In this document: positions 10,173-33,256 of the stretch, piece by piece
Numbering within the stretch: the stretch's first letter is position 1
Layout of the letters: the number at the start of each line of letters is the position of its first letter
Source: Rhodopila sp.
GTDB taxonomy: Bacteria; Pseudomonadota; Alphaproteobacteria; Acetobacterales; Acetobacteraceae
Direction: 5' to 3'
Assembly (NCBI GenBank): GCA_028291505.1
Contig: JAQGHW010000825.1
Location: 1-33,256, forward strand
Length of the DNA: 33,256 bases
The notes under the pieces: model-generated
The model's database searches: none
Told to the model about the DNA's origin: nothing
Seen by the model: only the letters and a program-made list of their open reading frames with translations
Position numbers and translations under genes: made by a program

Positions 10173-10376
10173 ATGGCTGTTCCAAAGAGAAAGACCTCCC
10201 CGTCGCGCGCGGGCATGCGCCGCAGCCATCAGGCGCTGCCGCACGAGGCGCACGCCGAATGCCCCAACTGTGGGGAACTGAAGCGGCCGCACCACGTATG
10301 CAGCCATTGCGGCCATTACGATGGGCGCGAAGTGGTTGCAGCCGGGAAGCCGCTGCGGGGCGCTGTCCGGATCTGA
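10173..10376 (+). CDS. rpmF: 50S ribosomal protein L32
   Basis: 67 aa [54 protein letters not shown]; four-Cys zinc motif. Confidence 0.97.
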
Positions 10377-10422
10377 GGCCGGGTCGCGGCGTGCTGCTGG
10401 TTCGCCCAGTTCTGGTTCGTCC

Positions 10423-11679
10423 GTGACCACCGGTCCCTTTTCGCTGGCCGTGGATGCCATGGGGGGCGACAATGCCCCTGACATGGTTGTGCAAGGCCTT
10501 GAATACGCGGCAGAACGCCACCCGTCGGCGCGCTTCCTGCTGGTTGGCAACGAGCCGGTGCTGACTGCGCTGCTCGGCCGCCACAAGCGTGCGCGTGCGG
10601 CCTGTACCGTGCGGCATGCCAGCGACGTCATCAGCAATGACATGAAGCCGACCGCCGCGCTGCGCAGCCGGCAATCCTCCATGCGCGTGGCGATCGACGC
10701 GGTCGCGTCAGGGGAGGCATCAGGCCTCGTCTCGGCTGGGAATACCGGCGCGTTGCTGGCAATGGCGAAAGTCGTCATCAAGTCGCTGCCGGGCATCGAT
10801 CGCCCAGCCATGGCCGGCATCGCACCGTCCGCTCGGGGCGACGTCGTCATGCTGGACCTGGGTGCCAACGTGCACTGCGACGTGCGGAACCTGGTGGAAT
10901 TCGCGGTGATGGGCGACGTGTTCGCGCGCACCGTGCTGGGCCTGACGGCACCGACCATCGGACTGCTGAACGTCGGGTCGGAGGAGCTGAAGGGCGACGA
11001 TACGGTCCGCGAGGCGGCCGAGATCCTGCGCGCCAGCCATATTGGCCCGCAGTTCCACGGTTTCGTCGAGGGCCACGACATCGCCGCCGGCACGACCGAC
11101 GTGATCGTCACCGACGGGTTCACCGGCAACGTTGCGCTGAAGACCGGCGAAGGCGCGTTGAACCTGATCGGCGAGTTCCTCAAGCAGGTCTTCACCAGCA
11201 GCATCTACGCGAAGGTCGCCTATCTCCTGGTGCGGCCAGGCCTGGACCGGCTGCGCGAATGGCTCGACCCGCGGCGCTACAACGGCGCGGTGATGGTTGG
11301 CCTGAACGGCGTGGTGGTGAAGTCGCATGGCGGGACTGACGCGCAGGGTTTCGCGCATGCTGTCGACGTCGCGATGGACATGGTCACGCACCGGTTCAAC
11401 GATCGTATCCGGGAGGATCTGGCTCGTATTGGGCTGGACAAGCGCGGGCCGACGGAGAAGAACGGGCGTGATCGCGAAACAGCAGGGTCCGTCGGCGACT
11501 CGGCGTCCGGCGAGTCGCGGCCCAGTGAAGCGCAGCCCAGTGAATCACGACCGGGCGAATCGCGACCGGGCGAATCGCGACCGGGCGAAGCGGGGCCGGG
11601 TGACTCTCTACCGGGAGAGTCGCAACCGGGGGAGTCGCGATCCGGCTCGAATGACGACCCCCAATTCGCTACTGCCTGA
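10423..11679 (+). CDS. plsX: Phosphate acyltransferase PlsX
   Basis: FSLAVDAMGGDNAPDMVVQGLEYAAE...SAGNTGALLAMAKV...LDLGANVHCD...GLLNVGSEELKGDDTVREAAEIL...FTGNVALKTGEG. Probable GTG start 10423 between rpmF and fabH. Low-complexity C-terminal tail follows the conserved domain. Confidence 0.94.
   Translation: MTTGPFSLAVDAMGGDNAPDMVVQGLEYAAERHPSARFLLVGNEPVLTALLGRHKRARAACTVRHASDVISNDMKPTAALRSRQSSMRVAIDAVASGEASGLVSAGNTGALLAMAKVVIKSLPGIDRPAMAGIAPSARGDVVMLDLGANVHCDVRNLVEFAVMGDVFARTVLGLTAPTIGLLNVGSEELKGDDTVREAAEILRASHIGPQFHGFVEGHDIAAGTTDVIVTDGFTGNVALKTGEGALNLIGEFLKQVFTSSIYAKVAYLLVRPGLDRLREWLDPRRYNGAVMVGLNGVVVKSHGGTDAQGFAHAVDVAMDMVTHRFNDRIREDLARIGLDKRGPTEKNGRDRETAGSVGDSASGESRPSEAQPSESRPGESRPGESRPGEAGPGDSLPGESQPGESRSGSNDDPQFATA
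11516..11650 (+). repeat. About nine degenerate 15-bp tandem repeats at the 3' end of plsX
   Basis: Units such as cgcgaccgggcgaat, cgcgaccgggcgaag, cgcaaccgggggagt; protein ...SEAQPSESRPGESRPGESRPGEAGPGDSLPGESQPGESRSG. Confidence 0.9.
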
Positions 11680-16035: not shown

Positions 16036-19280
<3,245 letters not shown>

Positions 19281-19786
19281 TCCGCGCTGAGCCGCGGGGC
19301 GCGCCAGACAGCCAAACGCCAATCCGCGTTCAAGGTGTCCTGCATCCGCCCGCGCGCCGGGCGGGGTATCGGGACTACCAGGGCAAAAGTCAAGGATCGG
19401 CCTCGGGCGAATACAAGCGGTATTGCGTCATCGCCCCATTTTCTCGCTATGGCAGCGCAGCAATAGTGCCGACGGAGGCGGATGCGGGCGTCAGGCTGCC
19501 ACCCGTTGACGGCATTCAACGATGGATCAGCGTCCCGGCTCACGGCCTGGCCACGATCCGTGATCGCGTGGCCACCGGTTTGGATGACGTTCAACTTGGG
19601 CAGGATGCGGCGTGCCGGCGATCACCCGCCGGTCATAGCGCTGGCCCGTCAGTTTCGACGTGACGGGCTGGGCGCCGCTCATGACGCGGCTCCTTCCGGG
19701 ACCACCTTGTTGTCGATGATGGTGCCCACTGGCGGGCGGCGGCTTTCGCCAACCGCCGCCACCGAACCCCAACATTTGACCGGGCG

Positions 19787-31666: not shown

Positions 31667-31769
31667 GGGGGCAAATATGGAGTTGATGCCAATCCGGATG
31701 AGAACAACCGCCCAAACGAGAGCAGCCGGATGACCTCGTCCGTCCGGTCGCGCCTTGTCGGGTGTCCCC

Positions 31770-33125
31770 ATGAGCGACGCGATGTCTGGTAGCAACCTGT
31801 TCGGTGAGATCCGCCGGTTCGCTCGGACCTCCGGTGCGGTCGGCGGGATTGCTGCTCGCGTGGCGGGGGAGCGGGTTTTCGGGATCAAGACCGATCGCGC
31901 GGCGCACGCGGAGGATTTGAAGACCGTCCTGGGTGGCCTGAAGGGGCCGCTGATGAAGGTGGCGCAGTTCCTGTCCACTGTCCCCGACGCGCTGCCGGTG
32001 GAATATGCGGCCGAGTTGGCGCAGCTTCAGGCCAACGCCCCGGCCATGGGCTGGAACTTCGTCCGCCGTCGCATGGCGAGCGAGCTAGGTCCAGGTTGGC
32101 AGTCGAAATTCGCGTCGTTCAGTCAGGAGGCCTCGGCCGCCGCCAGCCTGGGGCAGGTGCATCGGGCCCGCCTGCCGGATGGAACGGATGTGGCGTGCAA
32201 GCTGCAATATCCGGATATGGCCAGCACGGTGGAAGCCGACCTGCGGCAGTTGAAGCTGGCGATGGCGGTGTATGCCAGGATGGACAACGCCATCCGCCAG
32301 GATGAGATCTACAAGGAACTGCGCGAACGCCTGCGCGAGGAGCTGGACTACCTTCGCGAAGCCGCACAAATGCGGTTGTATGGCCTGATGCTGAAGGACC
32401 AGCCGGGGGTGCACGTGCCCGTGCCGCTGCCGGAATTCAGCTCCAACCGCCTTTTGACGATGACCTGGCTGGATGGCCGGCCGCTGATGCATCGGCTCGC
32501 GGAAGACCCGCCGCAGGAGGAGCGCAACCAGATCGCCGAGGCGCTGTTCCGCGCCTGGTACGTGCCGTTCTACCGCTACGGCGTGATCCACGGCGACCCG
32601 CATCTGGGCAACTACCAGGTGCGGCCCGATGGTTCGGTCAACCTGCTGGATTTCGGCGCCATCCGGGTGTTCGGCGCGGGTTTCGTCACCGGGGTGATCG
32701 AGTTGTTCGAGGCGGTGCGCGACCACGACGATGCCAAGGCGCATCACGCCTACAAGACCTGGGGTTTTGTGGACCTGTCAGATGAAAAGATGGACGTGCT
32801 GAACCTGTGGGCTCGGTTTCTTTACGAGCCGCTGACCCAGGATCGCGTCCGCCGCATTCAGGAGACGGACGATTCGACCTTTGGGCGCGAAGTCGCCGAA
32901 CGGGTGCATGCCGGACTGAAGCGGACCGGTGGCGTCATGCCGCCGCGCGAGTTCGTGCTGATGGATCGTTCGGCCATCGGCCTGGGCGGCGTGTTCCTGC
33001 GGCTGAAAGCAGAACTGAACTGGAGCCGGCTGTTCCATGACCTGATCGCCGACTTCAATGAGGCGGCACTGGCGGAGCGGCAGGCCGCCGCGCTGTTGGA
33101 GGCCGGGGTTCCGCTGGCGCGATGA
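31770..33125 (+). CDS. ABC1/UbiB (AarF/ADCK) family atypical kinase
   Basis: LKGPLMKVAQFLSTVPDALPVEYAAELAQLQ, EASAAASLGQVHRARLPDGTDVACKLQYPD, GVIHGDPHLGNYQVRPDGSVNLLDFGAIRVF. ATG 31770 preferred over TTG 31755. Confidence 0.93.
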   Translation: MSDAMSGSNLFGEIRRFARTSGAVGGIAARVAGERVFGIKTDRAAHAEDLKTVLGGLKGPLMKVAQFLSTVPDALPVEYAAELAQLQANAPAMGWNFVRRRMASELGPGWQSKFASFSQEASAAASLGQVHRARLPDGTDVACKLQYPDMASTVEADLRQLKLAMAVYARMDNAIRQDEIYKELRERLREELDYLREAAQMRLYGLMLKDQPGVHVPVPLPEFSSNRLLTMTWLDGRPLMHRLAEDPPQEERNQIAEALFRAWYVPFYRYGVIHGDPHLGNYQVRPDGSVNLLDFGAIRVFGAGFVTGVIELFEAVRDHDDAKAHHAYKTWGFVDLSDEKMDVLNLWARFLYEPLTQDRVRRIQETDDSTFGREVAERVHAGLKRTGGVMPPREFVLMDRSAIGLGGVFLRLKAELNWSRLFHDLIADFNEAALAERQAAALLEAGVPLAR

Positions 33126-33170: not shown

Positions 33171-33199
33171 TTGTTCCCAGGTTGGGAACATCCTATATT
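33171..33199 (+). promoter_or_regulatory. sigma70-type promoter with embedded palindromic operator upstream of a HigB-type toxin gene
   Basis: -35 TTGTTC (33171-33176), 17-bp spacer, -10 TATATT (33194-33199); perfect palindrome TGTTCCCA-GGT-TGGGAACA (33172-33190) overlapping the -35 and spacer. Confidence 0.7.
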
Positions 33200-33204
33200 G
33201 AATC

Positions 33205-33256
33205 GTGCAGATCATCGCCAAACGGACACTCATGGTGTTTTGGGATCGCCATAACC
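33205..33256 (+). CDS. higB: HigB-like (RelE/ParE superfamily) type II toxin, N-terminus only, truncated by window end
   Basis: GTG at 33205 reads V(M)QIIAKRTLMVFWDRHN..., matching the HigB N-terminal pattern (M-x-I-I-x-K-x-x-L-x-x-F-W-x-x-H) as I recall it; preceded by a promoter/operator. Confidence 0.68.
   Translation, partial: MQIIAKRTLMVFWDRHN

What the first reader, a model, noticed from the sequence alone, without database searches (positions are those of the whole stretch)
33171..33256. Right-edge HigB-type toxin with a palindrome embedded in its promoter and almost no leader
Translating from GTG 33205 gives V(M)QIIAKRTLMVFWDRHN, a HigB-like N-terminus not in the ORF track. Immediately upstream is a -35 TTGTTC, 17-bp spacer and -10 TATATT, with the perfect 8+3+8 palindrome TGTTCCCA-GGT-TGGGAACA over the -35/spacer, as expected for autorepression by a cognate HigA antitoxin. 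Only 5 nt separate the -10 hexamer from the GTG, so the mRNA would be leaderless or nearly so if both calls are right.
Basis: partly seen in the sequence, partly recalled or inferred. Interest (0 to 1): 0.68.

Follow-up and report, generated by a model that had tools for sequence, protein, structure and literature searches.

The report
Leaderless HigB toxin start with operator
The contig's last 86 bases hold the start of an ordinary bacterial toxin-antitoxin operon (higBA), and comparison with about 145 relatives suggests that its toxin gene is read from an mRNA with no leader while the antitoxin usually keeps a normal ribosome-binding site, an arrangement conserved far beyond this bacterium that I did not find described.

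Summary
GTG 33205 opens 17 codons (VQIIAKRTLMVFWDRHN) matching the conserved N-terminus of PF09907 HigB. TTGTTC-17-TATATT and a perfect 8+3+8 palindrome lie where stated, and the -10 ends 5 nt before GTG. The contig ends inside higB, so the rest cannot be read here. A same-genus genome carries the same kinase followed by an intact operon: TTGTTC-17-TATCGT, 5 nt, GTG, a 98-aa HigB (PF09907, E 7.5e-29) and a 129-aa HigA starting in TGATG. The layout is conserved. Among 85 loci below 70% HigB identity, 46 have TTG-(16-18)-TA ending 3-8 nt before higB, mode 6 nt (shuffles: mean 2.4, max 9; higA starts 0/118). In an alphaproteobacterium with mapped start sites the -10 to +1 distance is mostly 6 nt, so transcription should begin at the start codon. 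higA usually has a Shine-Dalgarno; higB mostly lacks one. The operator half-site covaries with HigA's recognition helix, identifying HigA as the likely ligand. E. coli K-12 higBA, the characterised relative, is reported with an SD. The locus is a new member; the conserved leaderless-toxin/SD-antitoxin layout is a new variant, shown by sequence only. No start site was measured.

The parts
31755..33125 (+). ABC1-family atypical kinase gene just upstream (80 nt before the higB GTG); syntenic in G010 and G012
   Evidence: PF03109 E 7.3e-59; synteny
33171..33176 (+). -35 element TTGTTC, overlapping the left operator arm
   Evidence: sequence; TTG at 17-nt spacing conserved in relatives
33172..33190 (.). 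Operator palindrome TGTTCCCA-GGT-TGGGAACA, predicted HigA dimer site
   Evidence: related operators and covariation with the HigA helix
33194..33199 (+). -10 element TATATT
   Evidence: TATATT at 5-6 nt from the start also in L048, L064, L120
33200..33204 (+). Five bases between -10 and start codon; length conserved, sequence not
33205..33255 (+). First 17 codons of higB (VQIIAKRTLMVFWDRHN), GTG start and predicted transcription start; gene cut by the contig end
   Evidence: N-termini of relatives; sister protein PF09907 E 7.5e-29

Best explanation
This is the promoter, operator and first 17 codons of a chromosomal toxin-first HigBA type II toxin-antitoxin operon downstream of an ABC1 kinase gene. 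A sigma-70-type promoter (TTG-17-TA) sits against the gene, so RNA polymerase should start at or within a base or two of the GTG and give a leaderless toxin mRNA. A HigA dimer, alone or with HigB, binds the palindrome over the -35 and spacer and blocks polymerase (autorepression). The antitoxin gene, overlapping or closely following the toxin stop codon, has its own Shine-Dalgarno sequence in most relatives. Translation would therefore favour antitoxin over a toxin made only by the leaderless route. Shown: the sequence elements, the HigB N-terminus, conservation of layout and spacing, the SD contrast, covariation of operator with the HigA helix. Inferred: the exact start site, HigA binding, the window's own higA, and the effect on the toxin:antitoxin ratio.
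For: Elements in place. Syntenic sister with intact higBA, GTG start and 5-nt gap. 46/85 representatives with the promoter 3-8 nt before higB, mode 6, against 2.4 in shuffles (max 9), and 0/118 at higA starts; stricter version 25/67 against 0.45 (max 4) and 1/262 control ORFs; named alphaproteobacteria 33/47 against 1.3. The gap is kept where the operator has moved relative to the promoter, as in Burkholderiales. Mapped alphaproteobacterial promoters have 17-nt spacers and mostly 6 nt from -10 to start (PMC12403871). SD pairing weak at higB, strong at higA. Operator half-site follows the HigA recognition helix.
Against: No start site has been measured at any of these loci by me. The window's -35 is weak. 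About half of the representatives lack the element as I defined it, and several loci (L008, L050, L191, E. coli L095) look leadered. A leaderless GTG is unusual: all 171 leaderless starts mapped in S. meliloti begin with AUG, though that study defined them so. The sister L031 has a weak higA SD (-1.6 kcal/mol), so the SD contrast is not uniform. TTG and TA were fixed by my test, so conservation of those letters is partly built in; the shuffles and control starts, not the letters, carry the argument.
Confidence: 0.78

Rival explanations
1. A HigBA operon as above, but the working mRNA has a normal leader: transcription comes mainly from further upstream (kinase read-through or another promoter) and the promoter-like element beside the GTG is minor.
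For: The kinase ends only 80 nt upstream on the same strand, so read-through is possible; the -35 is weak; E. coli K-12 higBA is reported with an SD (PMC2814082).
Against: The element is kept 5-7 nt from higB in many genomic contexts with different upstream genes, and is absent at control starts. higB generally has poor SD pairing.
Confidence: 0.15
2. The right edge is a decayed higBA remnant, not a working operon.
For: In G012 the same site holds only the end of higB and a frame-broken higA; contig truncation hides the rest here.
Against: Promoter, perfect operator, start and 17 codons are intact here, unlike G012, where promoter and N-terminus are gone.
Confidence: 0.05
3. The palindrome is a transcription terminator of the kinase gene or an unrelated hairpin, not an operator.
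For: A perfect 8-bp inverted repeat with a 3-nt loop just after a gene.
Against: No T run and no terminator called; related palindromes occur upstream of higB in many contexts and their half-sites track the HigA recognition helix.
Confidence: 0.02

Closest known systems
E. coli K-12 HigBA (YgjN/YgjM), PF09907 toxin
   Same: Toxin first, HTH antitoxin second, single autorepressed promoter, translation-dependent mRNA interferase (PMC2814082); solved K-12/Shigella-type HigB chains are the sister HigB's best PDB matches
   Different: Reported with a putative SD; no -10-like element beside the ATG in its upstream sequence, and a different operator
PD-lambda-2 anti-phage system (Vassallo 2022, PMC9519451)
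   Same: First gene is a HigB of the same family (sister hit 1.8e-33) and the second has a HigA-like part (2.4e-33)
   Different: PD-lambda-2B is fused to a peptidase and a third gene is required for defence; the sister HigA is 129 aa and the next gene lies on the opposite strand
Leaderless regulator and TA transcripts (lambda cI, paaR2 of the E. coli O157 paaR2-paaA2-parE2 locus, TA genes of Methylosinus sporium and Synechocystis)
   Same: Transcripts starting at the start codon in TA or repressor operons
   Different: In cI and paaR2 the leaderless gene is the regulator; here it is the toxin, while the antitoxin usually has an SD. The Methylosinus and Synechocystis papers do not, in the text I read, single out this family
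HigBA of other toxin families (Proteus Rts1, M. tuberculosis HigBA1/TAC)
   Same: Toxin-first order, HTH antitoxin; in M. tuberculosis HigA1 binds a palindrome over a -35 (PMC3968373)
   Different: In M. tuberculosis the promoters lie 51 nt upstream of higB1 and 29 nt upstream of Rv1954A, so not leaderless for the toxin; different toxin families by my own knowledge

Membership tests
HigBA (PF09907 toxin, toxin-first type II TA) | Toxin of the PF09907 family | tested here: inconclusive
   Only 17 residues in the window, too short for a family scan; they align with the N-termini of relatives that pass PF09907, including the syntenic sister (E 7.5e-29)
HigBA (PF09907 toxin, toxin-first type II TA) | HTH antitoxin gene immediately downstream | tested here: inconclusive
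   Beyond the contig end; met in the syntenic sister, where HigA overlaps the higB stop, HTH_3 just under cut-off
HigBA (PF09907 toxin, toxin-first type II TA) | Operator for the cognate antitoxin in the promoter | tested here: met
   Palindrome over -35/spacer; half-site class follows the HigA helix across loci. Binding itself not tested
HigBA (PF09907 toxin, toxin-first type II TA) | Ribosome-dependent mRNA cleavage, neutralised by HigA | not testable with these tools
   Needs expression assays
Leaderless mRNA | Transcription starts at the start codon | tested here: inconclusive
   Predicted from the 5-nt gap and its conservation and from mapped alphaproteobacterial spacing; not measured
Leaderless mRNA | No Shine-Dalgarno before the start | tested here: met
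   GAATC precedes GTG; family median -2.9 kcal/mol at higB against -6.6 at higA
PD-lambda-2 anti-phage system | HigA-peptidase fusion plus a third gene | tested here: not met
   Tested in the syntenic sister only: HigA 129 aa, next gene on the opposite strand

The most novel reading that the evidence does not exclude
PF09907 HigBA modules use initiation mode as a ratio switch: the toxin is translated only by leaderless (SD-independent) initiation and the antitoxin by SD-dependent initiation. Conditions that impair SD initiation would shift synthesis towards toxin without antitoxin degradation, and selection keeps the promoter 5-7 nt from the toxin start across several phyla for that reason.
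Probability: 0.15. Interest if true: 0.78.

Novelty: new variant of a known kind. Interest (0 to 1): 0.5.

Why it matters
How toxin-first TA operons keep antitoxin ahead of toxin is an open design question. A family-wide layout with a leaderless toxin and an SD-led antitoxin gives a simple, testable answer and links TA control to how the ribosome initiates. The pairing of operator half-sites with HigA recognition helices (SRAS with TTCCC, ARVA with CTCCC, NRVY with GTCCC) also gives a usable prediction of which HigA controls which operator.

Tried and rejected
A search of the own genome for the rest of higB found only one weak 17-position hit, C656:867-917, another fragment and not the continuation. 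A regulon of the same operator in the own genome: one perfect site, and the 1-mismatch site is inside a coding ORF. Terminator reading of the palindrome: none called. Scoring the -10 alone was weaker (24/67 against 6.3, maximum 15) than the two-part test. A generic palindrome score was also weak (8/8 arms in 11 of 67 but 7/8 common in controls); the helix-operator covariation was more telling. The Bradyrhizobium report of a strong start site inside an annotated higB (PMC5082802) might be a leaderless start in an over-long annotation, but the position is only in a figure and could not be checked. The published S. meliloti leaderless table is in a supplement that could not be opened. Structure prediction was not used: the window has only 17 residues and the family already has solved structures.

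Full report
WHAT IS THERE. The stated elements are in the sequence at the stated coordinates: TTGTTC 33171-33176, a 17-nt spacer, TATATT 33194-33199, five bases, and GTG 33205 opening VQIIAKRTLMVFWDRHN. The palindrome TGTTCCCA-GGT-TGGGAACA (33172-33190) is unique in the window (0.10 expected for up to 3 mismatches) and the only perfect copy in the 7.06-Mb assembly. The window is a complete contig, so the gene is cut by the assembly. A plain sigma-70 scan does not reach its threshold here, so the promoter call needs comparative support.

WHAT IT IS. PF09907 HigB genes occur in 22 of 59 relatives and 48 of 385 genomes sampled from the class. The class is Alphaproteobacteria: the same-class locus G038:C11 (L016) and the named record JADHVO010000004 (L129) share contig length, position and upstream sequence. 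The window's N-terminus matches these proteins, and GTG as start at the same place is shared by L031, L011, L114 and L064. In G010 the same ABC1 kinase (91% identical) is followed by CTTGTTCCCGAATGTGGAACGGGCTATCGTACCTT-GTG and an intact 98-aa HigB and 129-aa HigA whose ATG overlaps the higB stop codon. In G012 the same site keeps only the end of higB and a broken higA. Most other genus members have unrelated sequence after the kinase. So this looks like a gained module that is lost in places; direction of change was not tested with a tree.

CONSERVED LAYOUT. The test element was TTGnnn, 16-18 nt, TAnnnn, ending 3-9 nt before the start. Named alphaproteobacteria: 33/47 against 1.3 in dinucleotide shuffles (maximum 4). 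Other phyla and classes: 14/32 against 0.9 (maximum 4). After collapsing to 85 loci under 70% HigB identity: 46 against 2.4 (maximum 9), gap 6 nt in 24, 7 in 9, 5 in 8; spacer 17 in 38. Controls: 1 of 262 other ORF starts under a stricter version that found 25 of 67 higB starts, and 0 of 118 higA starts. The five bases before the start are nearly random (0.01-0.35 bits), so length is kept and sequence is not. In Burkholderiales the operator lies across the spacer and -10 (TAGTCCCAAATTGGGACTA), yet the promoter stays 7 nt from the ATG. In Methylosinus sporium, an alphaproteobacterium with mapped start sites, the spacer is mostly 17 nt and the -10 to start distance mostly 6 nt (PMC12403871); applied here that puts +1 on or beside the start codon. 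The same study reports that its leaderless transcripts are mainly associated with stress regulators and toxin-antitoxin genes.

TRANSLATION SIGNALS. Anti-SD pairing upstream of higB is weak (median -2.9 kcal/mol) and upstream of higA strong (median -6.6); at -4.4 or better, 26% against 69%. The sister L031 has a weak higA SD, so coupling through the overlapping TGATG may matter more in this clade.

OPERATOR AND ANTITOXIN. Among 105 loci with both parts readable, the operator half-site follows the HigA recognition helix: SRAS with TTCCC (55 of 64 arms), ARVA with CTCCC (17 of 20), NRVY with GTCCC (13 of 14, in an alphaproteobacterium and in beta/gammaproteobacteria), QRAS mostly with TCACC or TAACC, TRIA mostly with CGCCC or CACCC. 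Mutual information is 1.9 bits against a shuffle maximum of 1.13; shared ancestry inflates this, but the NRVY case crosses classes. The window's TTCCC half-site predicts an SRAS helix, which the sisters L031 and L011 have.

HOW IT LIKELY WORKS. HigA (with or without HigB) sits on the palindrome and covers the -35 and spacer, blocking polymerase. When HigA falls, transcription starts at the toxin's first codon. Toxin is made by leaderless initiation, antitoxin by SD-led or coupled initiation, which should keep antitoxin ahead. The last step is inference. E. coli K-12 higBA, the characterised family member, is autorepressed and shown with a putative SD (PMC2814082); in its upstream sequence no -10-like element lies next to the ATG.

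NOVELTY. HigBA, autorepression and leaderless TA transcripts are each known. I found no description of a conserved leaderless-toxin/SD-antitoxin layout for this family in the open-access library; subscription papers were not searchable. The locus is a new member; the layout is a new variant. PADLOC files the sister pair next to PD-lambda-2, but the fused peptidase and third gene are absent, so a defence role is not claimed.

Noticed in passing
Relatives, table: HigA recognition-helix residues predict the operator half-site across classes (SRAS-TTCCC, ARVA-CTCCC, NRVY-GTCCC, QRAS-TCACC/TAACC, TRIA-CGCCC): a possible specificity code for this HigA family.
   Followed up: partly
L072 (G012, after the ABC1 kinase): Decayed higBA at the same site: promoter and most of higB gone, the last ~20 codons of higB and a frame-broken higA remain.
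   Followed up: partly
L038 and L046: HigA frames of 406-408 aa after a PF09907 HigB, with a length like the HigA-peptidase fusion of PD-lambda-2.
   Followed up: no
L195 (S. meliloti USDA1021 pSymB 728045-728338): An open HigB frame with a TTGACA-17-TATCCA promoter 7 nt from its ATG, without annotation in this record; a convenient strain for testing the start site.
   Followed up: partly
Own genome G000:C656:867-917 (L007): A second, truncated HigB-like fragment (18.7 bits, positions 58-74 of the profile), with what looks like a HigA start just beyond it on the same (minus) strand.
   Followed up: no
window 11327-11679, + strand: The PlsX-like protein (10321-11679) ends in a degenerate repeat tail (ESRPGESRPGEAGPGDSLPGESQPGES).
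   Followed up: no
window 17238-19322, - strand: A DEAD-box helicase-like protein has an N-terminal AEQTV repeat and a C-terminal tail of R/E/P-rich repeats.
   Followed up: no
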